A stretch of 64,000 bases of DNA from Capitulum mitella (lineage: Eukaryota > Arthropoda > Thecostraca > Pollicipedomorpha > Pollicipedidae), in NCBI GenBank assembly GCA_030062745.1, contig CP099844.1, positions 19,096,596-19,160,595 on the forward strand, read 5' to 3'. Below are positions 26,142-53,300 of the stretch, one piece after another; position 1 is the stretch's first letter, and each line of letters opens with the position of its first letter. The notes under the pieces were generated by a model. The model did not search any database and was not told the origin of the DNA. It worked only from the letters and a program-made list of their open reading frames with translations. The position numbers and the translations under genes are program-made.

Positions 26142-26359
26142 TCACTCCTTGGCCACCTCCTCCTCGGCTTCGGCCGGCGCGGCGTCGGCGTCGGCGCCGG
26201 CGGCCGCGGCGTCGTACTGCAGCTCGCAGCGGGCCTCGTCCGAAGCGTCGGCGCAGTCCGGCTGGCCGTCGCAGAAGGCGGCGATCGACAGACACTCGCC
26301 CGACATGCACGGGAACTCGTCCGGCGCGCAGGTGGCGCCCTCCGTTTGAGAGGCGCCGG
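26142..26359 (-). CDS. HSPG2: Perlecan terminal exon: C-terminal LDLa and acidic tail
   Basis: The acceptor CTTCCAG at 26360 joins in phase to the preceding Ig exon. It encodes an LDLa module with all six cysteines and the calcium-site motif ([26 protein letters not shown]), then an Ala/Asp/Glu-rich tail ending EAEEEVAKE and TGA at 26142. No good donor precedes the stop; the only GT candidates (in CTGCAGTACG and GAGGAGGTGG) are weak and would break the usual module phase. So this reads as a true last exon, which is unusual for perlecan. Confidence 0.85.
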
Positions 26360-29300
26360 CTGGAAGCGGGACGCGTGACGTCAGAGGCCTCGGCGGATCG
26401 GCTCGGCCCGGACACGGTCGGCTCCACCTGGCGGCTCTCCTAACACACCCCCGGCGGAAAGGGTGAGCCAGCCTTCCCACACGCACACTGATACAAGGTG
26501 ACGACACGCCGCTCCTTAACTCTTTATTTATTTATCTATTTATTTTTTTCATCGTCAACAGAGTATTTTCCCTTAAAGGCCATGTCAGTGATATGAAACC
26601 ACAATATAATCCGTACACTCAAATCCCCCTAAAACATACACCAAATAACACGCAAAAAGACTTGCTGATACCGCACCGGTTTCCAAAAAGCTCAACAGCA
26701 AAGTGGACTGCAAATGCCGTGCAGAATGGCGCGCAGATTCGTGCCAAAGAGCCCTGTATCAGGTCTGCTTACGCTGGACAGTGAGCCGGATGATGTCTTG
26801 CTGGCGGCGGCCGTACTGGTCCTGTATGGCGCAGATGTACACACCGGACGCCGACTCGTCCACGTCCGTCAGTCTGGCAGAGAGAGCGACGATCGTCACG
26901 TGACCGAAGAGACCGCGAGACGGCAGGGCAGACAGCGGCGGACACACGGGAACTAGCAGGACGCCTCAAACCAGGAGAAAATGAGCTGAAAGTGACGCAA
27001 AATACGGCGCACCGTCCTCTGCCCGTTTGAACCTCCGCGGCTGTTTTATTACAGAAATATGTGTGGCGAGTAAATCAACGCAGAGCTATGTGTTTCAAGG
27101 AGCTGGAGCATTTCAGGGGTCTGATGACTGGTAAACAATGAACAGTTGGCATAGAACGCCAAAGTTCGGAAGAACGTCAGGTAGTGGGCACATCCAGAAT
27201 CCTGACGCATGTCTCAGGAAGCGGACCTGCCTCAGAGTGGTGTCCTGCCTCAGGAGGCGGACCTGCCTCAGAGGGATGTCCTGTCTCAGGAGGCGGACCT
27301 TCCTCAGAGTGCTGTCCTGTCTCAGGAGGCGGACCTACCTCAGAGTGCTGTCGTCTGAGACGGCGCTGTCGGGCAGCGGCTGGTCCTCTCTGGACCAGCT
27401 GATGCGGCCGTTGAAGCCGGACGAGTCACAGCGCAGGGCCACAGACGAGCCCACGTACGCCACCACGTCCCGGTCGAAGGCCACGATCCGCGCGCCCTCT
27501 GGGGGCCGCCAGGTGCGGTCAGATGCTATCTAACCATCATTTCTCACAGAGTGATTTCATCGTCATCTGTGATGGCTGGCGCACTCGATGTCTCCACCTG
27601 CCAACGCGACGGTCAGACCCAAGCACTACACATCACCAGCAAGCGTCAAAATTTTCACCCAACATTCTCTCGCAAGTCTCAAGACCACCTCCGGCAGGCC
27701 CCGCGCCCTTTCATCTCATCACTGGCGATCTCGAGCGTTGCTCACCGCTGACGATGACTTCAGCCACACCCTGGGCCTGGCCGGCCGAATTTTCGGCGGA
27801 GCAGACGTAACGGCCTTCGTCCGACACCGCAATACCACCGAACTGAAACAAACAGCACACGTCTGCCACTGGCCGTACAAATGGAAACACGAGCGCGCAG
27901 CGCTGCATGAGAGAAGTATGCCAATAGAAATGCGGAGCACACCTCAGGATTGTAGACGAACACATCGAAGTCAACCCGAATGGTCGAAAAAGGGTAGCCA
28001 TCCTCGGTAGTTAAATGGAGAAGCATGGCAGCTATAGTGAGAACAGCAGTCTGAATCGCATGACACAAAATGTTCCATAGGCCTCAGACGACACAAACAA
28101 GCCCAATGTTACATGTGCCACAAGGCAAGCGCTGTTTTGTTATGAAACGGCAACGGAGTCGGCCTCGGCCATCACTGACGGTGAGTACGCCGTCGATGAC
28201 GGACACGGTGTCCGGCAGCTGGCCGTCCACCCTGTCCCAGCGCACGACCACCGGCTGGTCGCCGGTAACGGAGCAGTCGATGCTGACGGTCTGGCCGGGC
28301 TGCACCACCTGGCGCACCGGGTCCAGCTGCACCCGCGGCGGCTCTGGGGCAGGGGACAGACAGGCCGGCCATGACCGGGGCAGAGGCGGCGCCACCGGCC
28401 AGGTGTTCACGTCCCGGCCCGAAGCACTGACCAGACCGGGCGACTGACACCATACAGGCGCTCACGGTCCGGCCCGGAGCATCGGCCGGACCGGGCGACT
28501 GACACCATACGGGCGCTCACGGCCCGGCCCGGAGCATCGGCCAGACCGGGCGACTGACCAGTACCACACAGGAGCGGCATGTTGCTCATAGTCACACTCG
28601 CGACGGTGGTGATTCTTACATCCTGATGCAGTTTTCTACGGCTTTGCTTTTTTATTAAGTTTCTTTGGTAAAATCACAAAAATGTGCCATCCCGGTGGAT
28701 ACCACGAAAACATTTCAAAGTTTCCGCAAGTGTATTAAGATAAACGACATACAATAGTGGATACCAGGCGTACGAAAAACTACAATACGTTCTTAAACAG
28801 TGTGTCCAGGGAAAGCCATAACACAAGATCGGAATAGTCTAGCCAGCAGGTGAAATGGGTACTTCCAGGGGCGTAGCCAGGGTTTCGCACGGGGTGGGGG
28901 CCAAATCGGATCAAGGGGCCCTCGTAATCAATGGGGGCCCTCGCCAAGGGCGGATCCAGCATTTCGCCAAGTCGGGGGGAGGTGGAGGTGAATAGTCAGT
29001 GCGGGGACCCCGGTTTTCTGCCATTCAGATATGAAAAATGATATAATTTTGCTTTTTTACTATATAAAACAACCGAGGAAATTAAAACACGTCACCTTAT
29101 GTGGGAAAATTTGTCGTTTTGTTCTCGAACAAAGTGGTCAAAATGTGTTAAAAACGGCGAGATTTTAGACGGTTCCGTCCTTCCCTCCATCTCAAATGTC
29201 ATGTCTGTATCTGGTCCAGGAACCCGCCCGTCCCCACCCCCCATCCCGCAGCTTCTGGGGATTTTTTGTCAGCTTATTTTAGGTTTCCTCTTGCAGTTAC

Positions 29301-32300
29301 AGGGACACTTTTGGTGGTCTGGGGCCGTCTGCCGTGCCAAGACCCTCTAGTGGTCTCAGGTTCCTTTTACAGCTTCACGTGTCCCGCGGGACGTCTCAGG
29401 CGCTCATTTGGCAGTTTCAGGGGCACCTCGGACAGTCTAAGGGACTCATCTGGCAGTTTCAGGGACGCTTAAGCCATCTCGGGTCCCCTCCTGTTGTCCC
29501 TGGAACGTTTTTGTCGTCTGAGGAGCCCATCAGGCACTAAAAAAGGCCCTCCATAAGTCTCTCTCTGCCGAGACAGAGGCACCTCTGGCAATCCTCTAGG
29601 TCCTTTGGCCGTTTCAGGAACAGTCCGGACGTCTCAATGTCTAGTAGTTTCAGGGGCCCCTCTGGTCGTCTCTATTGCTAGAGACTTTTAGTTAGCAGTC
29701 TCAAAGGTCCCTCTTTGGCAGTCTCAGTGGACCCGGTGTGGTCCTGGGTACCCCTCCTTGTCGTCTCTGGGAAACATTTTTGCCATCCCAGGGCCCTCTG
29801 GCAGTTACGAAAGACCTTTTGGCGATTTCAGGGTCCCTGTGCGGTGTTATGCCTCTGAACGTCTCCGGTGGTCCCCATGGCCGTATCAGGGGTTTTCCTC
29901 TGTTACATGAGGTATATCTGGCAGTCTTTTAGGGCCCCTCTACCCGTAACAAGAGGCTTTTGCTGGCGCTTCAGGGGCCTCACTGTCAGTCTCAGGGGGA
30001 CTGTCCGTGTCAGGAGCCCGTTTATTATGCTCGGGGACCCTCTGGCCGTCCAGTGCCCCCATAAAAGCCAAATACTGTCTCAGAGGCCCTTTATCGTCTT
30101 TGCTTCGCAGGGGCCCTGCAACCTTTTTGGCGACCTCAGGGGTCATCTGCGGTGTACGGGCCCATCTTGCCGTCTCGGAAACCATCTGACCTTCCCGGGA
30201 GCCCTTGACAGCATCAAGAACCCCTCAAGGTTTCAAAAAGGCCAGTAGCCCATTTATGGCTCCTCTCGAGGTTGAGAAGGTAACCGACGAATCCCCGTTC
30301 AGGGGGCCCCTACTCTGGCTGGCCAGAGTCTCCTTATGCCGTACTAGGCACCCTCTTAAGTTTTTTCCTTCTCAGGTGCCTCTCTGGCAATTTTAGCGGT
30401 TTCCAATTTTAGCACCCTTTGCCGTGCTGGGGCCCCTTCCGGTCCCAGGGGCCCTTGAAGAGTTTCAAGGGCCCTTCTTTCCATCTTAGGGGCCATCTTC
30501 CCGTGTCAGGGTCTCATTAACCCTCCTGGAGGCCCTCTGACTACATCAAGAACAAGACATTCAGCTTTTCACTCACAGGGGCCCCCTAGGGACTCAGTCC
30601 TTATCTTGCCCGTCTCAGGGAACCTATAAGCCATCTGATGGTCTCAAGAATGCTCTGTCGTGTTTGGGCCCTTTTGTGGTCTCAGGGGCCTCTTTGGGAG
30701 CTTTAGGGGCCCTCTATGGGTGTCAGCAGGTCATCTAACCCTCCAGGAGGCCTCCCTGACTGCATCAAGAGCCCGCCATGTTCTTTTAGAGACCCTGTAA
30801 AGCTCATACGGGCCTCTTCGGGGCTCCTTTTAAGTTTGACAGGGGCCCCTTCTCAGGCCTCAGGGGGGAGGGGGCGATCACCCCAGTTGCTCCCCCTTTG
30901 GATCCGCGACTGGCCCTCGGAATCAGTGGGGCCCCATGTGGCTAAAATTACTGTCGGTTTGTAAAGGGGCCCCGCTGAAGTGTAAACGGGGCCATGCTCT
31001 CATGGAAAGACGTTCCTACCGACCTGGCGGGTGCCTCTTACAGGTCGGCAGGGACATCTTTACAGGACAGCAGGGGCCCCTGAATGACAGTTTAGGGGCC
31101 CCTGTTGGCCAGGGGGGGGCCACTGCCTGTCTGTAGAGTACACCCTATCTGTCTGTAAAGGGCCCCTGTCGACCTCTGGAGGCAGGGGCAGGGGCGTTCT
31201 TCATAGCATTCAGACCGGCATCAGGTTCCTTCAGAGGCTCACAGGGGCCCTTTATGGGCCGACAGGGGGCCCTCCCCAGACAAGCAGTGAACTCCCCTCC
31301 AAGCCAGCAGCGGCCCGTAAACGCTCATTTATATCACGGGCCTCTCTTCATAGCACACAAAGCCTTCTTGTTTATTCAGAGTACGTTTTCTTTAGATTCG
31401 TAAGCCTTCTTTAATGCTTAAAATGTTCTTATTTTGCTTTGTCTGTTTCGGACAGTGTAAGACGCCGTGCGGGCGCCTCACGCTATCCAAAGAACTGAGG
31501 CCCCAGGGGGGCCCGCACGGCTGCCAGGGAGCCCCGCTTGGCCTCCAGGGGGCCATGGCCCCTTTGCCCCGCTTGGCTACGCCAGTGGGTACTTCAAAAT
31601 CAGCACTCAAAAGTCTTTGGCCGTCCAGTCTGCGCGTTGAGAGTTTCTGAGAAACTGTTCATCCATAACGGGCGTTTGCAGAGCACGCGGATCACCGATC
31701 AATCAAACGCATCACGTTGAACGAATGGAGCCACATCGTCCATGTGGCCTTGGGCAAACCAGTCATGACGTAACTCGGCTCTAGATTCTCGCTGTCCTTC
31801 TGGACTGGACTATATGGTATTGTGTTTGTGGAGAACACTGAGCCCGTGGTGCTACGGTACTTACACCAGGGAGATATACAACACTCTAGGACGACTGAGT
31901 TAGCCGCACACTGCAGTGCTCATTGCGAAGACATGCAACATGGTCCAAAACTCAGAACACTTACCGATGACCTTCAAGGTCGCATCTGCCTGGAAAAGCA
32001 CGACCTCCGAGGGACCCAATCCCAGGCAGGTGTAGGTGCCCTCGTCGTTCTTCTTCACGTCGTTGATGTAGAGGGTGCCGCCGCGAATCACATGGTCGGA
32101 TGGCATAGGCAGGCCATCGGATCGAATCCATGCAATGGAGATGTCCCGATTTGATCCTATAGAGTATTGCCAGGATCAGAATCGATAGCGTTCATCTTTC
32201 ATCATGGATCGATTGCATCGCGTCGTCGAGGATTTAAGTGTGCCAAAATTAATATTACGTGGTAGATGCTCCGCAGTGTAACGACATATCGCAGTGTAAA

Positions 32301-35300
32301 TCACTGGCTTCTTACGCGACGGCGCACGGTGCAGCCAACAAATGATCAAATATTTAACCATAGCGACCAGCTAGTTTCATGCAGTCTGAGCACAGCGTTA
32401 TGACTTCCGACGAAAATTCAGATAAGACACGTTACAATTTTTCTCTCCAATGCTACACTGGTATGCATTTCATTTTGCTCACAATGGCAAGTGACGTTTC
32501 GCACGAGGAGAAACTGCATCTGGGGGACGACTTTTCCCCGTGGGGGCCTATCGAACATCAGATGTGAGCCCGTGCTCTGCTGGGATCCGACCTCTAAAGA
32601 CAGGGACCCCTTCACGCCGGACCTACCTTCCACCAGACAGGTGAGCTCTGCGCGGCCGGACAGAGGCACGACGTACACCTCCTCCGAGGGGTGCACGCCG
32701 CCTGCGGTCACGGGCGGCCGGCCACCACCGCCGCGGCCGACGCCGCCGCCACCACTGCCGCCTCCGTCACCTCCGCCTCCGCCGCCGCCACCTGCCCCGG
32801 CGGCAGGCTCCACAACGAGCCGGATGCGCTCGGCGGTCCGACCGGCCTCGCTCTCGGCAGAGCAGACGTACACTCCGGCGGCGGTGAGCGGCGTGGCGGC
32901 GAAGTCGAGCTGCGTGTAGCCCGGGCGGCCGGAGGCGCCCGACCAGTCGGCGCCGCCGCTCCAGAACACGGACGGCGCCGGCTTGCCCGAGGCCGAGCAG
33001 CGCAGCTCGAGCGGATCACCCTCCAGCACCCTGGCAAAGGCGGGGGTAGGGGGTTACGCAGCCTAAGCGGATCACCCTCCGACACTCCAGCAGAGGAGAG
33101 GGGGAGGAGGTTACACAGATTTTGTACTTGGAGGAAGACGGGAATAGATGGGTTTTATACGTTGGACTGCCACGATCGTAAGAAATGGTCGTAGAGAGGG
33201 AAAGCGACAGGCGACATGCACTGAGACTTCTGATCTCTTTGGAAAGCTTTTTCAGAGTAATGTGCAGGGCCCATTTACTCGGGGCAGAGGAAGAAGATGA
33301 ATTTCACCCATTGCTGTAAAAACAACTCGAACTTAAAGGTGTCTAAAATTGTGGGCATCATACAGTTATCATTAGCGAGGCAACCTATTCTAGCTTCGCA
33401 GTTTCCCATACCTGACCACCAGCTAAAGCTCCGTCAGCTTTTTTGAGATTCTCACCAATGAACGAACGGCAGACGCAGGAAACAGCTCCCTCGCCTGTCC
33501 ACACTACAACACGGAGGCGGTTATCTCCCGTTCAGTGCAGTACTGACCCACAGACGCCTCCGGCATCATCACCTGAGCAGGGACGGGTGGTCGATGACGA
33601 CCACAGGGGGCACCAGAACTTCCAGGCGGGCTGTGGCAGTCGCCTCTCCGGCAGTGTTGGACGCCGTGCAGACGTACTCTCCCTCTTCATCCCCAGTAAC
33701 CCGGATGAACCTGGCAACAATGGCAAAAACACGACATTGCTGCTAAATTCAGATCGCGATTCCCGGGGAATCGCTGCTGAGTAAAGGTCTTTGTTCAGAA
33801 ATCGACACAATACAGCGGCGTAAAATGGCGATATAGTCGCCGAAGTCATTCTCCATGATAAGCACAAGAGTCCAGATGTACCAGCCAAAGGGAGAGAGCA
33901 GCTAAAGCGATGACCTGGAGCCGGGCGGTTCGCTCGGCGCCGGCCTGATGACGCTGCTGACCTGATGACGCCGCCGGGCAGGATCTGGGCGGTGCGCGGT
34001 AGCTGGCCGCCATCTGCCCTGGTCCAGGTCAGCTGTGGCGCCGGGTCGCCGGCCGTGACGCGGCACTGGAACAGCACCGAGCCGCCGACCGACACTTGCT
34101 GCGCCTCGGATGGGTAGATCTCCAGTCGGGGCGGCTCCAGCGCTGCCGAGTAAACCGTAATCGTCACCCACTAAAACATCGCGCACGCACGCACACCGTC
34201 ACTAACGGCTATTCCATGAGCCCGGAAATTCAGAGGTGGCGGCAAAGACGCCACTAAAACAGTCGTGGTATGCACGATTCTTTAATCAGTTATGGTCCAC
34301 CAGTTCTCATGTCGGTATTTCGGCCACTCACGCTGCACGTCGACGACGGCCGACGCCTGGAGCCGGCCGGCCGTGCAGACGTAGACGCCGCGCTCGGCCG
34401 TGGTGACGTCACGCAGGATCAGCGAGCCGCCCACCTGCTGGGCCGAGTCCGGCAGCGGCTGGCCCGGCCGCGACCAGCGAGGCGATTCCCCGTCTGCGCC
34501 GCACGGACCACATTCAGGTTAGAGGTCAGAGGCCGGGTCGCGCTGGACCAGAGATTAGGTCGCATATCGGGTCAGAGGTCAAATCAGGGGTCAGGTCAGA
34601 ATCTAAAGGCGAGATGAATGGTCAGATGTGCCTTCAGAAGCCAGATGTGAGACGAGGCCAGCCCACGCCCAGTAGTGGCCAGGTCAGCGGTTAGGTCTCA
34701 GAGGGCAGGTCAGTTCATATCAGAAAACAGGTGAAGTCGGAAGTCGGGTCAGGGCTCGGAACAGAAGTCAGGTCAGACTGAATGTCAGATAAGAGGCCAG
34801 GAGTAAGGTCAGATCCGTTCAGAGGCTGTTTCATGCCACGCCAGTGGCCATTAAAGCAAAATAAAGTTCAGTATTCAGAGGTCATTTCAGACCAGGTCCA
34901 AGGTCAGGAAAGGTCACGTCAAGTCATACGCCAGGCTGGAGGCCAGACGAGATGTCAGATTAGGTCAGATTAGAGGTCAGGTCAGAGTTAAAACCATAGA
35001 TCAGACCAGAGGTCAGGCAAGACTTTGGATGTCAGGTCAGAGGCCAGGGTAAGAGGTCAGGCCAGAAGTCGACGTCTCTGCAGAGACGGATTCCTGCCAG
35101 CGGTGTCATCAAAGGGAGACGGTGGCCGTGGAGAACAGCAGATGTACGTTGCCCGCTCGCTTGTCAACTTAGTTTTGAAATTCAGTTTTTCGCCCATAAG
35201 GTTTTCGCACCAGATTTCCCATTGACAGCAGCATCTGCATATCGGCAGCCAAAGCATCCCACCATGTAAAAAAAAAAAAAAAAACACTGTGGCGTTTCAG

Positions 35301-38300
35301 AGGCTCAGTGACCGCAACAGCTGGCTAGCCATTACCTGACGTCAGACACTGCAGCTCGACGGTGTCCCCCTGTCGCACGGTCTGGCGGTCTGGCTTGATG
35401 TTCAGGACAGGAGTAGGTCCGGCCACACGCACCTCCACCCGGGCCTCCAGCTCCTCCCTGCTAAGGGGCGGAGATAAACGCCATCAGCCGGGCAGTCCGT
35501 CCCATTCTGACAGCATGCCAAACTGACCTCATTCTCAAGCGAACTGTGCAGTACGTGAAGCCGAAAAAATCTTTTGACTCCTGTAAGCTAGCAGTTATTT
35601 TTGGTGGTGTTGTCGTTGACTGTGTGGTAAGCGGATGGCCCCGGCTCGAATTTCTAGGGTACGGTCCTGTTGTTGGCGCTTAGGATAATAGCAGTATAAA
35701 GGCGCGGATCAGGCTGAGAGTTAAAAGTGAAGAGTACCTAACCTGCCGGCTTCATAAACTCAGCATGAGCACACTGGAATTGCTAAAAAAAGGCCTGAAT
35801 GTTCCCGCAGTTTCCATGTTCATGATCACGATTATGATTCCTGTCCGTTATTTGAACGCTAAGAGCATGATACGACCAGAAAGTGCCCGTTCTAAAAATA
35901 TTGTTGTGAAGCGTCTTAGCCTCACGTGATATACTTGCCTATTATCATCGTCATACTGCGAGCGTATCAGACAGACGGGACTTTTATGCGACCGGCAGGT
36001 CATCATGTAACCTACAGACTGAGGATTGTGTTACCGTTGCCCGGCGGAATCGACAATGGTGCAGACGTAGACACCTGCGTCGACCGACTGGGCGTCCTTG
36101 ATGGTGAGCACTCCGGCTTCCTCGCTCGCGCTCTGGGGCGCATCAAATGCGGGCGTTACGCAAGACTGGAAAGGCTGGCTGACTTGGTTTGGACGCATAA
36201 AAAAGACTGGTATCAATTCAACTTCCGGTGAGCAAATCGGTTTGCGAACAACAGTTCACCTGCTATGGCAGCTTAAAAATTCACCTGCATTCAACAGAGC
36301 ACTGGGAGCAGCTGTACGTAATCCCTAATGAGGTCATCCTCCATTCTGTCACGACTGTCGGCGTTTTTCAATGGTTAGCATTCGCATCAGAAATATGCAC
36401 GAAAATCATTGCATCAAAATGCAAGCAGCAGAACCGGCAATTCCTCACTTTTCTCCGGATTCCTCCGCCTAAGGTACTGGACGGAAGTGGTACCGAGGGC
36501 TTTGGCTGCAACAGCAATGTACCTGAGCTATCTGGCCGTAGCAGCGGCCATACCTGGGGCAGCCGCCGTCCTTCGCCGCGGCTCCAGAAGACGCCGGCGT
36601 CGGGCCGGGCCGAGCGGCACGCCAGCCGCACCGTGTCGCCGGCCTGGACCAGCGCGCTGTTCGGGTCGATGCGGCCGAGTGGCGGCGGCGGCGGCACCCG
36701 CCCCGACTCCGTCACGTAGATGACGGTGCGCTTCGCGTCGGTGCCGGCCGAGTTCGTGGCCGTGCACGTGTACTCCGCCTCGTGCTCCTTCCGCACGGCG
36801 CTGATCAACAGCACGCCGCCTATGACGTTCACCTGAAGAGGACGTGCACCAACGTACATTTAGTACCTTCTACAGTACCTTTATACCATAGCCTGAGAAC
36901 GAGCAAATTGAAAGGTATCTGACGATGGTACGGCATGGAGATGCTACGCGAAGTGCTACTGAACAAGACGACAATGGTGTTGGCTTATCATGCACGGAAA
37001 AATAACGTGCCTATGGCAATCGACTCTTAAACAGATGTAGATTCCTGACCAACTTCAGCTAGGACTAACATTCCCATGACAGCAACTAATCAACACGTTT
37101 TAAGCAATGTTTATGTTTTTTATATTGCCTTGAAAAACTATGCATGTACGTTTGTGTTTATGTGAATCCGCATACTCCAGGCCAATGAGCCAAAGATATC
37201 GACATGCGCGTTAAGTTCGACTGGGACAGTGAGCCGGGCCCCCAGCTGCCCTGCCCGTGCGGCGGGGGCGGCCGGGAGTGGCTGCGCGCCGCCGGGCCGG
37301 CACTGACGTCCGACTGCAGGACGCCGCCGCGGCCGCCGGACCACGTCAGCGCCGGTGCCGGGATGCCCTCGGCCTCGCAGTCGAACTGCGCCTGGTCGCC
37401 GGCGCGCAGCTGCAGGTAGCGCGGCGTGATGCTCACTCGCGGCGGCACCAGCGGCTCGTCACCTGCGGGGCGGGGTCATGAGCTTCCCGAGCGATCGCGT
37501 CGCCTGGTGGCCCGGTTAGGCTTGCCATTCGGAAAACATGTCGCTGCGTGTACAACGTCCTATGCCGAGGGAAAACGTCATGTCCTGGAAAGCAGACCTC
37601 AACGGGAAATTGACCAAACTGACATTTCATTGGAAAGATGTTTGGACTCTGCACGATGACAGTGACTGCTCCATAGGAGTAGGAGGTACGTCGACACAAT
37701 TTCCTACATTCTCTTCGTGTCCCACAGGAGTCCTACGGCATTACGGAACTCAAAGCGCCTCAGAACATTTCAGTAGGGTCACATTCATTCCGCCCGCTTC
37801 AGGGCTGCTGTCTCCGGTTGTCCGCGCCCGCAGGCCGGCCGGTCGGCGCCGCTACCTTCGATTTCGCAGGTCTCGCCGGAGAAGTTGGGCCTGCAGGTGC
37901 AAAGGACCGTGCCGTCGTCCGCCAGTGCGCAGCTCTGCTCATGGCCGCTGCACGGACACCGGCGGCACGCGTCCTCCGCGTCCCGGTAATGGCCCGCCGC
38001 GCAGTCCTGTCCGGACGGATCGGAAGGTCTTGGGTTCGATTCTCGATAGGGGCGCAGCGGGAAACTGGCAAGCGTGACAGCGGGGGGGGGGGGGCGTGAC
38101 GCGGAATGACGACAGGTCAATGTGGCGGAAATTGGCCGCATCGCCCACCAGCATGTAGACAATATAGACAAAAAAGGAAAACTCACTGTGTTGCTTCATC
38201 CTTCAGGAATGAACCACACACCCGTCCGAGGACCAGGAGAACTGTTACCTGCTGATATCTGGGCTGATGATATAAAAATGGCATAGGTCGAGTTTTTTAA

Positions 38301-41300: not shown

Positions 41301-44300
41301 GGCCTCTCGCTGGACACAGCGCGCTGTGCCGGCGGCGCACGTCTGAGCCGGCCGGCCGCGCTCCCAGCCCTGCACCGGCGGCCCACCTTGCAGGCGCACT
41401 GCAGTCGGGAGTCGCACTCGGCGGTCAGACTGCCGCGCGGGTCGCAGCTGCACTGCCGGCTGGGTCCGGGCCGGCACGGCAGGCCGCGGCTCGGGTCGCC
41501 CGTGTAGCCCGGCAGGCACAGCTCGCACCGCTGGCCGGCCGTGTTCTCGCGGCAGTTCTGCGGCGGCAGGAGCCGGTCACTGGCGGCACGCGGCCGCCGC
41601 CGACAGGCGTCCGTCAGCAGCAGGTGGTGGTCACGAGCGTCGGGCAGCGATCAGCGACGTTCGGCGTGAGTCGTCTGTACACGTCTGGTATATATGGATA
41701 TGTATGGTGACTATAATGGTGGTCACCAGTATGCGCAGGGATTGCTAGGGCACAGCGGCAGCCACCGGCACGCGGCAGCGAGTGGCGATACTGAACTGTA
41801 ACATGTAGAACAATGAACCTTATAGACGTGATCTTAAAAACAAAAGCATGGGTATGACAGACAGCCGCACGTGACTGTGGGCATCGCTGAAAAAGAAACT
41901 ATTTCACGGAGGAAAAACAAAACCGTTTGAAACGCCATATTATTACAGAGGGCATGACGGGCTGCTTACCAGGCACTCTCCCGTCTCCGCGTCACACTCG
42001 TTACTCCGGCCGCCGCATTCACACTGCACACACTGTCTCAGGTAGAGGCCGCTCAGCGAACGGGTGTAGCCCACGTCACAGTCCTCGCACGACAAACCCT
42101 GCAACACAACAGTGAACATCGTCAGTAACGTGCAGCCCACGTCACAGTCCTCTCACGACAAACCGTGCAGCACAACAAATGACGTCATTAAGGTGCAGCC
42201 CATGTGATAGTTCTTGCATGACAAAACCTGCAACAGAACAATCAAAGGGCTCAGTAAGGCGTTCACAACTTCGCAAACTCGCAGGAAAAAGCCCGGCAAC
42301 ACGACGCAATCAGCACGGTGTAGCCCGAGTCTCACAACTCAAAGAACAACTCTGCAACGGAAAGCAGAAAGAACTCAGCAACCTGCAACCCAATATTCCC
42401 ACTATACAGTCCATCAAACTGTCCTCGACACTGTTCCACGATCGCGTCGCGTCCTTTGCAGGGAGCAGCCGGCAAATTTTATGATCAACACTCTGCCGGC
42501 CAGCCGTCTGTCAATCGATGGCACTATTCCCTGGTATCCGGGGCCGGGCCGGGCGGGGGCGTACCCTGTATCCGGGCGGGGACGTACCCTGTATCCGGGC
42601 GGGCAGATGCACTGCTCCACGGCGTACGCCCGCTCCTGTCCAGTGGGTCGCGGCGAGGCCACGTCGAGCTCCACATTGGCTAGCCTGTCCGCGGAAACGC
42701 AGGTCAATTGTCGCCCAGTCACAGCCCAGAGGCAGGCGACGCCACAGCGGACATGTCGCTCAGTGTCGAGCACTGTGAGAGACGCGTGGTAGAAGCCAAC
42801 ATATCGGACCTTTCTGACGGTAAATAAGACCAGTATTCACCGCACTGTGTTACAGTTGCTGGTTGCGTAAAGGTCTAATGTAGTGTCGACGATTGCCACT
42901 CACGTCATCCATACCGCACACTACGGACCATCGCCATTATCTCAGTACCCAACCAACCATCAGCCCTGACCCTGAGCAGCCATCAACCCTGATCCAGCCA
43001 TCGGCCTTCCTCACATCGCCTGGGTGGCGGCCGGACTGTTGGCGGCCTTGATGATGATGTAGTCGAGATCGGCCAGCGCCATCAGCAGGTGCTCCCGATC
43101 CACGGGCCCGCCATCGTCGCGCCGCCACGCCTGCTCGCGGATCGGCACCTCCAGTCGCGTGGCCGCGTTGGCCGGCACGCCGCCGGCCGTCACGTGCATC
43201 AGACGAACGTCGTTACCCTGGCAACGACAGCGGGTGGTGAGGACGGTCCTCCATCCTCTTGATGACATATTTTGGCGTTAATTGACAGTATAAAGGAAAA
43301 TGCGGTAAAAGGACAATATGCAGACGACGTAGACGGGGAGGGAGTGCTCGCATCGACAATCCTCGTAGGTAGGTAGTGGTAGGTAGTGTGCACGTGGTGG
43401 TGAAGCACGTAGGTAGTGAAGCACGTGACCAAACGTTGCAGCACGGAATTGATAGGAAAAACTCACGAAGATTTCGATGTCTGGGTATTGGCCGTATGTT
43501 TGTCCCTGTCCGTCCGACGAGTAACTCTGGGTGAAGCGAAGGAAGCCGCCATAGGATGTGACCTTGTCGCCCAAGAACCGGGCAGGCAAGTCCCAGTATA
43601 GGGGCTGTAACCAGACAGTCATTGTCAATCGGAGAGGTCACCTCGTCAACGAGAAGCCGAGCAGGCAGGTCCCGGTGCGGTGGCTGGAACAAGGCAGTCA
43701 TTTTCAGACGGAGAGATCATCTCGTCGTCCAGGAAGAGAACAGTTAAGTCCCAGTGCAGAGGCTGGAGGCGGATTGACTTAGCCTATCTCGGACTATCAG
43801 CTGCCGTACTTGGCGTCCAGCCGGCGTACAACGGCTAGAAACGGACCGACGTCTCTAACACAAAACAGTTCAGAATTCATCTTCCCGGAAAATGGTCGAA
43901 GATGGCACACGTAAATCCTTGTCGACAGCCTTGAAGCCCTGACCATCTGCACCTGACTGAAACTAGCAGAAGCTAAAACAAACGTTTCCATTTCGGCCCC
44001 AAACCAGACGTTTTTCGGGATGCCACCAACGCTGAGATAACCCGGTAGGGATGCGATTGGCTTGACCGCAAAGTCGGTCAGCTGCTCATCCACAGTGCTC
44101 GGCAGGCGTCGGCAGCCTCAAACAGCCGGCCGCGCCGCCGCCGCCGCCGCCGCCGCCGACCGGGCTCGGAAACTGCCCTCACCCCGCCGGTGCCACGGTC
44201 CAGCTGCTTGAACACGAGCTGCCGGCTGGCCAGGTCGACGCTGACGCCGTCGTACTCGGTCTCCCCGAGGTAGTCGGCCATGGTGACGCCGTGGGACTCG

Positions 44301-47300
44301 CTGGTGAACACGGCCGACTCCTGGGGACAAGGCACGTCCGCTGCCGGTCACTGGCTGATGTGCCGCTCCGATGTCTATCCATAAGTCTTTAGTCCAGTCA
44401 TATGTTCAGTGCCGACTCATAAGATGGGGCAAGCGATGACGAGCATGAGAAGGAACGCTGGGCTAGTGATATTTCATATCGACTCCAGGAGCTCGATTAC
44501 TACGTAAGGAGTGATTTCAGAAATTTTGCGATAGTTCTGTACTGGTTTATCTAGGCTCCCAGGCTTGAACATAAAACACTAAGCTGTCTGTTGATTCAGC
44601 AAAAAATAGACCTGTAACCACCACACATGCTCATCTGAATTTGTTTCCGTAAGTGGTAACGCTAGGTTACTTAGCGTCTGAATTTTACCGCGGTGAAGGC
44701 TCGTCACATTATTATTCTTGAAGTATGTAACCATAATCGTTTAGTCCTATGTTGCTTATTCGCAGTTAAGTGGGAACATCGGAGCAAAACGGGACACACA
44801 GCAGAAAGCGAGCGTTGCACCAACCTGCCGACGGTGCCAGTCGGATGAGCTGCACTGGTCGGTGACGCCCATGCAGAAGCAGTTGATGCAGCCGTGCTGG
44901 TTCTCTTCACTGAGGTGGAAGGCGCGCGCCACGCATCTGTCACACCGGCGGCCCGTCACAAACTCCTGCGGCAGACAGCAGAGCTCGGATCAGCCGCAGC
45001 AGACGGCAAACTTGGGATCAACCCAGCCATATTGTGAATCATGGGATCAACTGCAACAGACGTCAGTGAACAAATTTGGAACAGCCCTCGGGAAACGACA
45101 GAGTTGGGCAAAAGAGGTCGGGCTCGTCGCGTTATTGTCAAAGCTGGATCAACCGCGGCAGGATGACAGAAACTGGATCAGTTGCAAATGACGGCGGGTC
45201 AGATGTAAGACTTTGCTTTGAAGGCAGACGGCGGTGTGGCCAGACACCGAGCGTCCGACTGCCACCGGGGAAACGGCGGGCCCGAGCCTAAGAGATCGTG
45301 TCAGCAGAACATCTTGAAGCAGTCAATGGGTAAACGAGATTAAAGAGGACGGTTTTGGTCCGTTCATGCCGATTATGTTTACATTTTGGTTTCCTGGCCC
45401 CACAAAATCAACCACGATATTATTATTCAACAAATTTCAGCGTGCAAACCACCCGCCAGAGACAAAAATATCTCAGTCACAAGCTGTAGAGCATACATGT
45501 CTACACACGCTGCCACACAAACCCTAGGTCTCGTCACAATTAATCCGGCACCACCTGGTGTGTTTTTGTACCGCGACTACCTCCAAGTGTGTCAAAAAAG
45601 GCACCCCCTTCTGTCGTAGGATCTGACCGTCGGATCTAAACCGGTCTACCACCAATCGATGGTCTTGAGTCTTGCAATTTAGAAAATATTGTGTTAGCCC
45701 TGTTCACATGACTGATGACGTCACAGGTCACGTAAAACGTGATCGAAAAAACTGACATCGGTCTGTATTTCATATCATCGGTAATTATGGTTTCAGAGCC
45801 ATTAATTGGGCATCAAAAGAAAACTCACGCTCTTCTGCATCAGATGCGTGCCAAAATGTTAAAAAATGCCACGTTGAGGTCAACCTAGGTTAGGCGAAAT
45901 ATTGGTCTTGCTTTATGCGTCAAAGATCGATACGTACTCACAGCCGTTTTGATCTACGTGACAGGAAGAATAAAAGTAAAACTTTCTTATGGTCAGTTTT
46001 GCATTATCTGCGTTTCATCCAGTCAAGGTCAGTCTAGGTCAGGTCAGACAAGGTTGCATTATTCTTACTGAAAAAGGGCAAACATTACTCGTTGCGATTC
46101 TTATCTGCGTCAACCACAGAATTGAAATAACATCTCATGATCATTAAATATGCTCTGTCTGCGCTTTAGAGGGTCGAGGTCAAGCCAAGTTATGACAAAT
46201 GGTCATTTTTCTTTTTCTGACTAAGAACAATAATTGTTCTTTGCTGCTACTGAACGATCTTCCTCAGACAATGTTGTATTTCATTTCGTTTTGACATCTG
46301 CCTGACGTGACCTGACCTGACATGACCTGACGTTGCATTTGGTGAACTTTGCTAAGAAGCGCATATAGATTTGCTTGTCCGACTTGAACGATGGGGAAAG
46401 TCAGCGGCAACAACTTCTATGAACCACAAAGTGAATTAGTCCAATTGTCATCATGCATGTGACCTAGCATGCATTGTTGACATATTACGACTGTATATCC
46501 TTTTGGAGACCGTTTCCTTTGCAAATCCAAATAAACCATGCATTGTACTGGCAAATATAAAAAACCAAGCATGTTCGCGCCACCGCCTGAACAGGCACAA
46601 ACAAGCATGCAAGGATACATTTGTGACGTCATATCTCCATGACCTGAACTGGCAGAAGAATGGTTTTGATGTTAAAATATGTACAGTCAGCTGATGTAAA
46701 GGTACTGAAAATTTGGTTGGGCTGACTCTAACAGTTCAGAAGTTCTTCAAGAAAACCGACGGGGGTGTCCTATTTGACACCCTCAGGCGGTGCCGTGTTA
46801 AGCGATGCACGGCAAAGAAGTACTTGTTCGGTCATTTGGTCCTAGCGCCTTCATTATTTAGGTCATGACATAAAACATACATATACCTATATGACGGGAA
46901 ATGTGTCTTTTACATCATGGTCTAAATAATGCAGGTACTGTACGAAAGCTTCTGCAAAGTGATGGAACATAACGATGTCCATGTCCGTGCAAAAAAAAAC
47001 AAGGTCGGTGGTCGAAGCGCGTCAGTGGGTAAACGTGGTCAAAAAGAACGGTTTTGGTCAGTTTATGAAAATAATGTTTACAGTCTGGTCTCCTGATCCC
47101 ACGAAATCAGCTGCGATGTTGTCACGGCCTAAATAGTGCAGGTGCAATAAGAAAGCTTGTACAAGGTGATAGAATGTCACAATGTCCGTCCATGTGCGTG
47201 CAAAAAATGAGATCGGTGCAGATGACCGAGTATGACGTTGCAGTTCCAATCGATGACTTAGGATATGTCAGTACACGGACCAGCCGAGGAAAACGTCAGT

Positions 47301-50300
47301 GTGTGCACAAGGTCAAACGAGCTGGGACCTCGGCCGCTCCAGGGTACCAGCATCACGTCCCAGATCCTGCTGAATTTGGCGAAGGAAAAGGGCACATCCG
47401 GAGCAGGTCTCCGATAAGCGGCGCAGACCGAGAAGCTCCGGCCGGAGCGACTCACTAACTATTACACATAATTTTTCGAGTGTAAGGTACATACGGACTT
47501 TTCTTACAGTGGCGGACCTGGGAAAATGCTGAATGCGCGAACTTGCGAGGTCAAAACTAGGGATGCGTCGGTTCGGGATTCTTGTGACCCGACTGGACAT
47601 CGGATATGACGGGTTGGAGTGCCGGGTATCCGGTCGGGTACCGGATAATATGGTTCCCTGTTGTTATCTACTATTTGTTGCTGAAAAATGGAATGAAAAG
47701 ACTGACCTGAAAAAGAGGGATCTGAAAAACTGAAAAATATTGAACAAAAGATATCAACAGTTTGTTGTGAGTTTTCCACATGTTTCATTGCAAGAAAAGA
47801 ATAGACAAAGAACACAGCGATGACAGAGGAGCACACCATCTCTAACTTTAGGCAAAAGGCAAAGGCTCCAGAATACGCAGAATGTCATAGCACTTGGAAT
47901 ACCTAGAATACCTGCCTTGATAAGCATTCTACAAAATTGCTTATGTATGTTCACTGAAGCATATTGTTCCTTAATGCATTTGTACAAGAATATCTGAGAC
48001 AGACAAAAACGTTTGGAAAACAGAAAGATGATGCACCACGAAATGGGTTGCCGAACATATGCTGGCTGTTGCTGTACTTGTTGAGCTTGAGTCCCACCCT
48101 TATTAATTATGTTTCAACCCTTCCGACATAAGAAGAAAAAGTAGTGCTCCAGACGGACCTAGGGACTGTCAGTTACATCGACAATCAATCTAACAAGGTA
48201 CGCTGCTCATGAAACAGTTTCGTAGATTAGAACATTAGACATTAGAACGTATCGATCGTGCACCGGAAGGTCAAATACTTAGCAATATCCGGCCGGGTCA
48301 CATAAATATCCGGCCAGATACCTGATACCGGATAATCCCAAATATCCGGCCAGATATTCGGCCGGAGCGGATATCCGGTGCATTCCTAGTCAAAATGATA
48401 CTAAAGTTGCCTGATTTACCCTCCTCAGATCCTGAACCAACAGCACGAAAGCACAAAATAGTTTGGCATTATGACGAAATGAAATCTGGCGAACTTTTCA
48501 ATCACCCCTACGATGTTTTTTGGCCTAAACCCCCCCCCCCCTCCCCCCAATACGTTGTAACCTTCCAAAACTGGCCGGTCGGATCCATCTTGATTACCCC
48601 AACGCAGGCTTTTGGTTCTATAGCCGTGATTTGCCGTTGCTGGTGCATGCTATAACACTTATCAGCATGAGTGTAGCAGCTCATAAGACAGGCAGGGCGG
48701 AGGCCCTGCCAACTTGGAGGTACCAGACGCCAGCTAGAGGATTTTAACACAGATTCTACAGTGTAGGGAAAGAAGTCACCTCTAGATGTCCCTGGCCCTA
48801 TGAACATTAAAAACGGTGTAACGCCCGTATCGTTCCGGATAAAATTAAAAACGAAACGTCATGGATCCGCACTGGAGATGATAAATGCGCCTCATATTTG
48901 ATAACACGGCTGTCCTTTTGGTCAAAAATATTCGACCATAAGTATTGGTCTAGACTGAAAGTATTGTCTGCTACTGGAGCCATAAAAAAATGCCATGATT
49001 AGGTGCTCTGAATCACCCACGAAACAGGGAGAGCTACTGACCTTACACTCGCAGAGTCCTGTCCTGGGGTCAGGGTCGTCCGTCAGCGACCCGACCGGGT
49101 TGCACTCGCCACCTGCCGGGTCATTGCAGGGATCAAATGAGTCATCCCGTCATATGAAGAGTCTCTCAACCTCGCGGAGGTTTTATGAGGTATCCACGCC
49201 TACAAAAGCACGGCACTGCAGTCGCTGGCGTTCTGTGGGACCAGCGGCCGCGGCCGCCTGGTCTCCGCGCCTGCAGGCTCTCAGACGACAGACTGAGCAT
49301 TTGTCCACCTCGTATGGGTCAGACGCCGACTCTGTTTGTCCTTTTGAAATATTTTCAGAAAAACCACGCGCTTCAGGCATAAACTTACCTTCGGTATCAG
49401 CAGCTTCTCTGGGGCGGATCGGGGGGGGGAGAGAAAAGGCTATCACCCAAAGACCAGGGTCGGACAAAACACTTCGCATTTGTCCGATGACAGAGATAAG
49501 AAAGTAGATAACAGGGACGTATGAGCATTCAGAAAAAGTGGGGGGAGGGCAGGCAAGGACGCTTTTCCTCGTGGGGCTAATGTTAAATTTCCTAAAACGT
49601 AGGGTGCCACGGCTCCCCTGGCCCCTCTCCGTTCATAAGCCCGTGAAAGACAACAGCGGACCGGCGGATACCGGTCCCACTCTGACCTTTGACACACGGC
49701 TGTCCCCGCGTCGGCTGACCCCTGTAGCCCGGGGCGCACTTCTGACAGCGGCGACCCACGTGACCCGGGTCACAATTGCAGGTCACCTGGTCGTCGGCGT
49801 CCAGGTAACAGGTCCTCCCGAACCTGGGAGCGCCAATACGTCCGGTCAGACTCTGCTCAGGAGCAGATGATGCGGTTGTTCATGTACGATATCTTAATGT
49901 TTGCATCACATGCGTACACATGGAATCTTTCATCCGTATAAGCATGTCATAGATAATGTTTCGGTTTGGAACTTGACGCGATTTTTGCTTTCCGAAGTAG
50001 AAATGTTAATAAGTTAATAAGACAAGACATCAGTCCACTTTTTGACCCGATTCAGCCCGTGGAAGCAAAACATTGGATTGGTTTATAACTAAGAAGAACA
50101 CAGAATTCTTTGCTATGGTCGACCGCAAGCATCTGGTTGGCTTTGACTTTGTTTGACAGGTTTGACTGGACCAATAATTTATAAATTTCGTAAACATCTA
50201 GGACATTTTTAATCCATATGACGTCTGAGTATCGTGAAATGTAAGTTATTCAGATGAGCCAGACTGGTCTTTTACTGCCAAAATTCTGAACAAGCCTCTG

Positions 50301-53300
50301 GTCAATAGACCAAATAGAATGGGTTTCATTCAGGTCCCAAGATATGGTGCTCTTGTAATTTAGCCGTGCAGTTATGAAAACATTACAGTCTGCCGAGCCA
50401 GCCTTCCCTGGCCACGATCAATCTCTCTCCTCTCCATTCTTGCTTCGAGAGGACGGCAGCACGGGACTGCTCCTGTGTACGTCCGTCAAACTATTCGACG
50501 AAAGTTTCGCGGCGCAGGATCGTCACTTGAGAAATACGAGCCACTTTCTGCGGTACAGCATGTGCACTGCGGCACAGCATAAGCATGGCGCGCATTCCCA
50601 ACATCACGTCACTGTGAGTCACCCACGAGCAACTGACGGGACCGTGGAACTGCAAACGGCTACTGGGGCACGGCCAGCAGGATACTCTGACTGGTACTGG
50701 GGGCCCGGACACGGGCACGGTCTGCAGGGGCTGGTACTGTAGTCCCCTGCAGGGGGCGTACTGACTGGTACTGGGGACCCAGACACGGGCACGGTCTGCA
50801 GGGGCTGGTACTGTAGTCCCCTGCAGGGGGCGTACTGACTGGTACTGGGGACCCAGACACGGGCACGGCCTGCAGGGGCTGGTACTGTAGTCCCCTGCAG
50901 GGGGCGTACTGACTGGTACTGGGGGCCCGGACACGGGCACGGCCTGCAGGGGATGCCGCGGCGAGGGTCGCCATACTCCCCCGGACGGCACTCGGCCGGC
51001 GGCTGCACGCAGCGGCCCAGCCAGCGGCCGCCCGGCTCACGCTGGTAGCCCGGGGCACAGTCCTGCCGGCACAGGGGAACAGTGTCGGAGCCACGGTGCG
51101 CACCACACCCCGACCCATGTCACTAACGTGGTCCGTCGAACGAAATAAGATGGGGCGGGAAGTGCAGAGTGCGTCAGTTCCTGTGTTCCACGCTTTCGTG
51201 TCATCAGAAGGAGTTCCTTCACTCTTTATGATATTCCGGTGTGTCCGGGAAAACATTCTCTCCCATCCCACGGGACAGTCCGGTGCGGCAGCGAGTTTTT
51301 GAAGTTACAAAACAGTCCGGTGTAGCCGGGAATTTTTGACCTCACAGGACTGTTCGGTGTAGCCGAGTTTCTCACTTCACAGGACAGTCCGGTGTAGCCG
51401 GGAGTCTCTCACCTCACAGGACAGTCCGGTGTAGCCGGGAGTCTCTCACCTCACAGGACTGCCCGGTGTAGCCGGGAGTTTTTGACCTCACAGGACTGTC
51501 CGGTGTAGCCGAGTTTCTCACCTCACAGGACAGTCCGGTGTAGCCGGGAGTCTCTCGCCTCACAGGACTGCCCGGTGTAGCCGGGAGTTTTTGACCTCAC
51601 AGGACTGTCCGGTGTAGCCGGGCGTTTCTCACCTCACAGGACAGTCCGGTGTAGCCGAGTCTCTCACCTCACAGGACAGTCCGGTGTAGCCGGGAGGACA
51701 GCGACAGTGCTCCACCAGGGCCGCCGGACCCCGAGACGTCTCCGTCGCGGTGGCGGTGTCCACGCGGACCGAGCTGATCATCGCCCGGCCGCTGTCTGGA
51801 GCGGGATACGCCCTGTCGCGCCGCCGCGCAGCGTCAGCCCAGCCACCGGTCGATCGTAGTCATGACCAGTCCATCCCCAAAACTCTGACTTATGCTGCTG
51901 GCTTTTCGACCACATGACGAACAAATGTCGGATTAAGCGAGCAGTCGCTCTCACGGTGTCAGTCTGCTTGGCATTAAAGTGAAAAAGGTTGGTCACGGCC
52001 ACAGGTGATCCAGCAGGCCAATAAACCAGCGCAAGTTCCTGTCATTTAGATCACTTGGATGATAAAAATAAACCGACCTTTGGGCTAAAAAATAATATAT
52101 TCGCAACCAAACTTTCTGCTTACGGATATTGGTTTGTAACACGGGTTTTGTTAACAATCGATGTCGTACCATGGATTCAAGAAATAAAAAAAATCGTTTC
52201 CCGGCTTTGTTTAGTGCTAGATAGATGAATGCGCAATCGAATGTCGTGGGTCCCAGTCTATAAAACTGAGTCCATCAATGTTGACTGGCCATAAGTAATT
52301 CAAATGTTGCACTATTAATGATTTTCTAAATTTTCCTGCATTTTTGTTCCGTTTTTTTACCGAATGAGGAAGGCATCGATGTTTTCCAGCACCATCATGA
52401 TGTCTTCTCTTGAAGCAACCACGTCGTCTCTGCCTCTTGTGACCAGAAAGAAGTTGCCTTCGGTGATTTTGATGTCGTAGAAGCCGTTCGATGGTTTAAC
52501 ATCCGCCCTATACCACATCGTCAGAGAGTTTCCCTGTGAAACAAAGTAGCACGGCACACGTGGCAGCATGAAAATCCATATGATGAATGTATGCACATCT
52601 GCAGTTTGCCAAGACCAGCGAAACATTTTCATGCTCTCAATGGAAGGGAAACAGAGAGAAGAGTACGTCAAGAATCAAGAACAAGCCGACTAACCCGTCC
52701 AGACGAATTACCGTCAAACAACAAGCATTCCAACATGCCATCTCTTGAGACCAATCTGGGAAATATGACAGTATCACCTAGTTAGAACAACAGCCATGGA
52801 TGAACATTTCTGAAACTGAACGTGGGAGACTGAGTAGGATTTCATGTCGTTTCTCTCTAGTCATTCTTGTAAATGCAAAATGATATCTCGTAAAAATATA
52901 TGACAAATGGGGGTATCTAAATCTTCCTAACTCTTCAGGGCTTCCAGCCATGGTTACAAAAATACTTGGACGAAACACGGACGAAGAGACAGACTGGAAA
53001 ATGGATAGCTGTCCTCATGGCCTCCGATTTCATCTCGCGCAGGCAGGAGAAAGAAAACGGCCAACCGATAGCAGTTTTGCCAAACCTTTCATGGACAAGG
53101 TCCTAGTCTTTACTGCTGAACCAGAAATCGTGTTCGCTCCGTCGCGCCGTTGACAGGGCGACTACCTTGATAACGACTTCAGGAAACTCGTCGTCCGGCG
53201 TGGGGCTCATCTGGAAGCGGATGTAGCCGCCGTAGCTGTTGAGCTGGCGGCCACTGTGAGAGTCCGGCAGGCCGAAGTAGAGGGCTCCGTCGAACACCGG

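What the first reader, a model, noticed from the sequence alone, without database searches (positions are those of the whole stretch)
27225..51710. Tandem repeats repeatedly seeded on perlecan exon-intron junctions
Seen: at least eight junctions of one gene (exons 10, 11, 16, 18, 19, 21, 34 and 38) are copied in tandem, with units of 23, 36, 36-37, 54-79 bp and 2 to about 11 copies. Each unit contains the exon's border codons plus the donor or acceptor. Donors and acceptors are both affected. The repeats lie on the intron side with the true site always at the exon end of the ladder. One or two could be chance; eight in one gene suggests a mechanism, for example duplication by a polymerase or repair event favoured at junction sequence, or selection keeping expansions out of exons so that only their intron side survives. 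Known background: tandem duplication across AG|GT is a proposed route to new introns.
Basis: partly seen in the sequence, partly recalled or inferred. Interest (0 to 1): 0.85.

Follow-up and report, generated by a model that had tools for sequence, protein, structure and literature searches.

The report
Exon-edge tandem repeats in a barnacle
In this barnacle-like genome, short stretches of DNA at the edges of gene segments have been copied many times over into the neighbouring introns, a pattern also described in lancelets, and their positions hint at where such duplications start.

Summary
The ladders are real. The eighth ("exon 34", 28400-28558) starts 53 bp inside its intron. The pattern is not perlecan-specific: in laminin and myosin genes of the same genome, 9 of 28 arrays span a junction, 3.8 expected under uniform seeding (p=0.006).

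The stronger signal is wider than the junction. Of 30 arrays in genes other than perlecan, 27 overlap an exon or lie within 80 bp of one, 14.7 expected (p=2e-7; the 80-bp cut was chosen after seeing distances). Within that zone the junction is not significantly preferred (9 against 6.5, p=0.18), except in perlecan. Introns without strong arrays show a GC halo, 0.64 beside exons, 0.47 at 150-250 bp.

These are "mirages", boundary-spanning minisatellites known from amphioxus, mechanism unclear. My reading: tandem duplication starts in GC-rich, exon-centred zones; selection removes frame-breaking copies inside exons; boundary copies survive because the exon-proximal splice site is still used. Why exons are the centre is inferred; recombination confined to conserved exons is one candidate. 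No RNA, reads, alleles or related barnacle genomes were available.

The parts
26146..57547 (-). perlecan-like gene (LDLa, laminin IV, laminin-EGF and Ig exons; N-terminal end at high coordinates), 39 exons modelled; ends of the gene not established
   Evidence: codon/splice model; P0001 'basement membrane-specific heparan sulfate proteoglycan core protein-like' from Pollicipes pollicipes, 59% identity over 76% of a 555-aa query, tblastn; domain names other than laminin IV/EGF are from reading the sequence
51269..51696 (-). donor ladder, unit 36/37, about 11.6 copies, exon overlap 29 bp (..GYTGLSCE|GTGAGA); higher-order periods 109 and 146
51668..51812 (-). exon whose donor is laddered (5' end uncertain: 51795-51829)
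50687..50952 (-). donor ladder, unit 74, 3.6 copies, exon overlap 39 bp
50914..51062 (-). exon whose donor is laddered (laminin-EGF; donor position uncertain by a few bases)
43574..43767 (-). acceptor ladder, unit 79, 2.5 copies, exon overlap 31 bp (too diverged for the decoy count)
43467..43604 (-). exon whose acceptor is laddered (laminin IV, PLYWDLPARFLGDK..)
42549..42603 (-). donor ladder, unit 23, 2.4 copies, exon overlap 16 bp
42588..42692 (-). exon whose donor is laddered (..CPPGYR|; 5' end uncertain)
42063..42245 (-). acceptor ladder, unit 63, 2.9 copies, exon overlap 36 bp
41970..42098 (-). exon whose acceptor is laddered (GLSCEDCDVGYTR..)
40856..41221 (-). acceptor ladder, unit 37, 9.9 copies, exon overlap 25 bp; 9 of 9 decoy acceptors found keep AG
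40690..40880 (-). exon whose acceptor is laddered (ANVQGDRCDRCQPGSFGLG..)
27210..27352 (-). donor ladder, unit 36, 4.0 copies, exon overlap 14 bp; 0 of 3 decoy donors found keep GT
   Evidence: exon end by model only
27339..27502 (-). exon (Ig-like by reading) whose donor is laddered
39808..39955 (-). near-exon array (periods 10 and 40), 18 bp inside the intron from the acceptor at 39789

Best explanation
These are mirage-type minisatellites: tandem duplications of 16-83 bp that start within a GC-rich zone made of each exon plus roughly 80 bp on either side, and then grow by further tandem exchange. Inside exons only duplications that keep the reading frame survive. Across a boundary any length survives, because splicing still uses the exon-proximal site and the extra copies fall in the intron. 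In the intron flank they are free. The exon copy is held fixed by selection, so the result looks like a ladder leaning on the junction. Shown: the ladders, the exon-centred excess in the genes sampled, the GC halo, both boundary types, and a frame bias in a very small sample. Inferred: that splicing ignores the decoys, and that the zone is where duplication starts. Most speculative: the cause. I favour recombination or break repair concentrated on exons because in a hyper-polymorphic animal only exons and their close flanks are alike enough between homologues; GC-biased conversion there would also make the halo.
For: Position: 27 of 30 arrays in genes other than perlecan overlap or lie within 80 bp of an exon, 14.67 expected, p=1.6e-7; all 39 arrays: 36 against 19.9, p=5.6e-10. 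The cut of 80 bp was chosen after seeing the distances, but a test without a cut agrees (28 arrays, folded collapsed position, KS p=1e-7). The 19 non-junction arrays among those 28 are also crowded at exons (KS p=1e-7) and give no clear sign of an exon copy, so the centre is the exon, not the AG|GT. Well-preserved arrays (best TRF row at least 90% matches) behave alike: 14 arrays, 7 junction, all within 63 bp. Both sides: junction arrays 9 donor, 7 acceptor. Specificity: 56 short-unit arrays (8 bp or less, TRF score 30 or more) in introns of perlecan, the laminin stretches and six myosin stretches show a weak bias (median folded position 0.34, p=0.03), against 0.06 and p=7e-12 for the 28 long-unit arrays by the same measure. 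GC: introns without strong arrays (131) fall from 0.637 at 1-20 bp to 0.469 at 151-250 bp; exon GC correlates with array density over 14 stretches (Spearman 0.78, p=9e-4). Frame: 5 of 6 arrays inside modelled exons have units divisible by three. Higher-order periods in 51269-51696 fit exchange of several units. Barnacles can be hyper-polymorphic: pi about 5% in coding regions and about 20% at fourfold sites in Balanus improvisus (PMC8270832, passages including part of the abstract).
Against: No recombination, polymorphism or read data for this genome, so the cause is untested. Some arrays lie far from any exon found: four in L049, where no exon was supported by homology (two of the four are in GC-rich DNA), 7890-8044 in the window (counted), and a degenerate repeat tract seen by eye at about 29290-31300 that TRF hardly scores. 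Within perlecan the junction is preferred even inside the 80-bp zone (7 of 9 against 2.8, p=0.004), and pooled over 36 near arrays p=0.01. GC and distance are collinear: flank GC alone explains much (2dLL 23.5, against 28.6 for distance and 34.7 for both). Short-unit arrays have a weak exon bias too (p=0.03). Three muscle-type myosin stretches (L046, L047, L048) have no array in the span counted. The frame test is tiny. The null assumes introns had today's length minus extra copies; much shorter ancestral introns would raise the expectation.
Confidence: 0.5

Rival explanations
1. GC-driven instability: GC-rich DNA slips or breaks more; exons and their flanks are the GC-rich part of these genes, so arrays follow GC and no exon-specific process is needed.
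For: Array units average GC 0.63 against 0.55 for alternative positions in the same introns (28 arrays); flank GC alone gives 2dLL 23.5; exon GC tracks array density.
Against: Distance fits better than GC and keeps an effect next to it (1.89, se 0.69), while flank GC then weakens (8.0, se 4.3) (30 arrays). Some arrays have GC near 0.4 or lower (L037 6398-6459, two in L049, window 7890-8044).
Confidence: 0.25
2. A junction-specific process: splice-junction sequence itself promotes duplication.
For: 7 of 9 perlecan arrays span a junction (p=6e-5), more than the 80-bp zone predicts (p=0.004); pooled over 36 near arrays, 16 span it against 9.3 (p=0.01).
Against: In the other genes, junction spanning is not significantly preferred within the zone (9 of 27 against 6.5, p=0.18), and arrays without a clear exon copy are about as strongly enriched.
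Confidence: 0.12
3. Survival bias: duplications arise everywhere, but those near exons persist because deletions that would remove them tend to cut into the exon and are purged.
For: Would give exon proximity without a hot zone; not excluded by any search.
Against: Arrays with best-row identity of at least 90% are as exon-proximal as the others (14 arrays, all within 63 bp), and short-unit arrays in introns of these genes show only a weak bias.
Confidence: 0.1
4. Geometry only: introns are short, so random units often touch a junction.
For: Per-array chance is indeed 2-35%, so some junction arrays are expected.
Against: Observed junction counts and positions exceed that null in both sets.
Confidence: 0.05

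Closest known systems
'Mirage' minisatellites of amphioxus (Adh3: Canestro et al. 2002, not held, seen only as cited; globins: PMC3087553, passages including part of the abstract; PGBD5 and TnC: PMC3902484, one passage)
   Same: Minisatellite-like tandem copies of an exon-intron boundary, at both 5' and 3' boundaries, units of 10-72 bp (Adh3) and about 150-160 bp (globins), many but not all copies with intact AG/GT.
   Different: Different phylum (barnacle-like arthropod, inferred); junction arrays in five genes sampled here (perlecan, three laminin-like, one myosin), up to seven in one gene; tested here against a positional null and found to be part of a wider exon-centred zone. Splicing, haplotype and somatic instability not tested here.
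Intron gain by tandem duplication of an AGGT-bearing exon segment (Rogers model, ATP2A1, as told in PMC4974935, passages)
   Same: Tandem duplication carrying splice signals.
   Different: Here the unit includes existing intron sequence and enlarges an existing intron; no new intron is seen.
Internal tandem repeats at exon-intron boundaries of human duplicated genes (PMC2812944, passages)
   Same: Minisatellites of about 30 bp at boundaries.
   Different: There they alter transcripts of recent paralogues; here the conserved protein appears unaffected, by homology only.

Membership tests
mirage minisatellites | tandem repeat spanning an exon-intron boundary, exon sequence present in the intron copies | tested here: met
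   7 of 9 arrays in perlecan, 9 of 28 in laminin and myosin genes; exon end checked by homology for 13 of these 16 (6, 7), the other 3 by codon model and reading; exon-edge copy ranks 1 of 37 in 12 of the 16, 2 in three, 6 in one
mirage minisatellites | both 5' and 3' boundaries affected | tested here: met
   9 donor, 7 acceptor
mirage minisatellites | normal splicing despite decoy sites | not testable with these tools
   no RNA; only indirect: the Pollicipes protein has single copies. Of the decoys found, 55 of 73 keep the dinucleotide (29/32 acceptor, 26/41 donor, with the L041 donor rows corrected)
mirage minisatellites | copy number differs between haplotypes or cells | not testable with these tools
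   one haplotype only
mirage minisatellites | concerted evolution inside the cluster | tested here: inconclusive
   higher-order periods 109/146 in 51269-51696; no tree of units made
intron gain by AGGT duplication | new intron made from a duplicated exon segment | tested here: not met
   units contain intron sequence; with extra copies removed (one unit left) 177-964 bp of intron remain for the 16 junction arrays

The most novel reading that the evidence does not exclude
In hyper-polymorphic animals (barnacles, and independently lancelets), homologues are alike enough for strand exchange only in exons and the first ~80 bp around them, so meiotic repair is funnelled onto exons; it leaves a GC halo and, as failed repairs, tandem duplications. 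Mirages would then be footprints of exon-confined recombination and predictable from heterozygosity.
Probability: 0.22. Interest if true: 0.75.

Novelty: new member of a known kind. Interest (0 to 1): 0.52.

Why it matters
Mirages have been described in lancelet genes with no known cause (PMC3087553 calls the mechanism unclear). Finding them densely in what appears to be a barnacle, with a positional null that separates junction, exon flank and deep intron, turns a curiosity into a testable process. It offers a source of intron growth and decoy splice sites, and it links the birth of minisatellites to the base-composition halo around exons.

Tried and rejected
First annotation pass used a codon/splice model alone and over-called junction arrays because it likes splice sites inside repeats. 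Homology removed L037 2443 and L038 5688 and left L033 6040, L035 8402 and L038 ~4291 as touching only; these three are non-junction at a 5-bp overlap (the first two count at 1 bp). Dropped before the count because a flanking exon was missing or doubtful: L034 8389-8566, L035 9701-9851, L038 14-228, L041 917-1000, four arrays in L049, two in L050; also L015 2116-2176 and L018 2906-2988 from the 8 of 30 small loci that I looked at (L020 there repeats L039), and the arrays of L001 and L002 (no gene established). Every array with score under 80 or unit under 15 was left out. L034 573-1041 and 1004-1193 were merged. Flanking exons known by codon model only: L036 5659, L044, L045 and the two window arrays added; myosin exons are codon-model exons in stretches picked by Pfam hits. 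A hidden exon copy in the non-junction arrays was looked for: none ranks first, two rank 2 and 4 of 37 (L037 6398, L036 5659), the rest 11 to 37. My L041 donor coordinate was two bases high; the overlap is 15, not 17, and the class is unchanged. Two tracts too degenerate for TRF (29290-31300 and 34512-35065) were not entered. An impression of long open frames through myosin introns, from a column, was checked on L048 and dropped: no frame of 300 aa or more. Genome-wide sampling of other families was wanted but the genome search answered only twice. The transporter-like (SLC5) identity of the window's plus-strand gene is from reading the sequence, no family search. PMC4039745 (passages) links an intronic C. 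elegans minisatellite to alternative splicing; it is not boundary-spanning.

Earlier description in print, searches: (10 of 10). They brought up boundary minisatellites in lancelets and human duplicated genes; (barnacle, genome, minisatellite, intron) returned none. I read only some of the listed papers, so this is no proof of absence elsewhere.
Full report
What the sequence is. The window is C6:19096596-19160595 of a 477-Mb, 16-contig genome. A perlecan-like gene lies on the minus strand at about 57.5-26.1 kb. The best of 42 proteins found with part of it is a Pollicipes pollicipes perlecan-like protein, 59% identical over 76% of a 555-residue query. One laminin exon elsewhere in the genome is 85% identical to an Amphibalanus amphitrite protein. 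I therefore take the animal to be a barnacle of neither species; that is inference.

The observation. I modelled the exons from codon usage (third-position GC 0.857) and splice signals and checked part of them with the Pollicipes protein. Seven arrays overlap an exon edge by 14-39 bp. In each of the seven the intron copies carry that exon's border, which scores first among 37 exon edges compared. Six of the seven exon ends are confirmed by the Pollicipes protein, which has one copy of each border. The eighth array, at 28400, starts 53 bp inside the intron.

Is it special to perlecan? No. I fetched stretches around laminin-EGF hits and myosin hits, chosen by Pfam family and not by repeats. The gene model alone over-called junction arrays, so ends in laminin loci were checked with homologues. 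For each array I removed the extra copies to get the collapsed intron and asked how often a unit of that length, dropped uniformly, would cross a junction by at least 5 bp. Laminin and myosin genes: 9 of 28, 3.79 expected, p=0.006; overlaps of 1, 3 and 8 bp give 11, 10 and 9 observed with p 0.002, 0.004 and 0.001. Perlecan: 7 of 9, 1.57 expected, p=6e-5. A clear example outside matrix genes is a myosin gene (L041 6317-6713): the exon end ..GYPSR, placed by reading the sequence, is followed by 45-bp units (7.9 copies) that repeat CCGTCCAG|GTGGGC.

Junction or neighbourhood? The arrays that do not cross a junction are also packed against exons: in the laminin and myosin genes 16 of 19 lie within 62 bp of an exon and the rest at 63, 84 and 164 bp. 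None of them ranks its own exon edge first. With two more arrays from the window's plus-strand gene, 27 of 30 lie within 80 bp or overlap, 14.67 expected, p=1.6e-7. The 80-bp cut was chosen after seeing the distances; the test without a cut gives p=1e-7 for 28 arrays. Given the zone, crossing the junction is not significantly favoured (9 of 27 against 6.54, p=0.18). In perlecan it is (7 of 9 against 2.80, p=0.004), but that gene was chosen for the pattern. Pooled, 16 of 36 against 9.34, p=0.01. So the safest statement is an exon-centred zone, with a possible extra preference for the junction.

Controls. Short-unit arrays (8 bp or less) in introns of these genes: 56, median folded position 0.34, p=0.03, a weak bias. 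The 28 long-unit arrays by the same measure: 0.06, p=7e-12. Better-preserved arrays (best TRF row at least 90% matches) are as exon-proximal as the others: 14, with 7 junction. Donor and acceptor sides are both used (9 and 7 junction arrays).

GC. In 131 introns without strong arrays GC falls from 0.637 beside exons to 0.469 at 151-250 bp, then 0.495 at 251-500; exons are 0.663. Exon GC tracks array density over 14 stretches (Spearman 0.78). A conditional model of 30 arrays gives 2dLL 23.5 for flank GC, 28.6 for distance, 34.7 for both GC terms and distance. The two are collinear and I cannot separate cause.

Filter by selection. Six arrays lie inside modelled exons; five have units divisible by three, and the sixth (L034 4610-4651) may be intronic, since one of my two models ends that exon before it. 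Decoy sites: of those found, 55 of 73 keep AG or GT, 29 of 32 acceptors and 26 of 41 donors (L041 donor rows corrected; the 43574 ladder was too diverged to score). Intact decoys suggest that splicing tolerates them, but there is no RNA here. The 40856 ladder has no stop over part of its length, so inclusion of some copies in transcripts cannot be excluded.

Known kind. PMC3087553 (passages including part of the abstract) describes 'mirages' in amphioxus globin genes, at both boundaries, with haplotypes of different copy number and unclear mechanism, and cites the Adh3 case (paper not held). PMC3902484 (one passage) adds PGBD5 and TnC. The arrays here meet the structural definition. Splicing and instability features were not testable.

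Mechanism. Shown in the genes sampled: exon-centred positions, halo, both sides, frame bias (tiny sample). Inferred: duplication starts across the exon and its flanks, and selection and splicing leave what we see. Speculative: recombination confined to exons in a hyper-polymorphic species. Balanus improvisus has pi about 5% in coding regions and about 20% at fourfold sites (PMC8270832); amphioxus is, from memory, also very polymorphic. Against: arrays far from any exon found in L049 and at window 7890-8044, the degenerate tract at 29290-31300, myosin stretches without arrays (L046-L048), and the absence of any polymorphism data for this genome.

Noticed in passing
introns of the perlecan, laminin and myosin genes (window, L033-L039, L041-L043, L046-L048): A GC halo: 131 introns without strong arrays fall from GC 0.64 next to exons to 0.47 at 151-250 bp.
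   Followed up: partly
window 29290-31300 (intron 28346-31965): About 2 kb of degenerate ~20-30-bp repeats (..ctctggcagtctcaggggccc..), almost invisible to TRF, far from exons.
   Followed up: partly
window 34512-35065: Degenerate ~12-bp ggtcagaggtca repeat filling much of an intron and starting about 19 bp from the exon at 34493.
   Followed up: partly
window 40856-41221: The 37-bp unit reads as a 37-residue peptide repeat (ASVQGDRCVVTTGQC..) through part of the array; a few copies could be translated if an upstream decoy acceptor were used.
   Followed up: no
L039 2223-2283 and 4111-4176, L041 4094-4152, window 26162-26214 and 39191-39219: Arrays inside modelled exons with units of 30, 24, 24, 21 and 15 bp, all divisible by three.
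   Followed up: partly
junction arrays in window, L034-L041: Decoy acceptors found keep AG (29/32) more often than decoy donors keep GT (26/41); no test made.
   Followed up: no
L046, L047, L048 against L033-L039 and the perlecan gene: Array density differs between genes: none in the span counted in three myosin stretches, 0.33-0.81 per kb in laminin-like and perlecan genes, and it rises with exon GC.
   Followed up: partly
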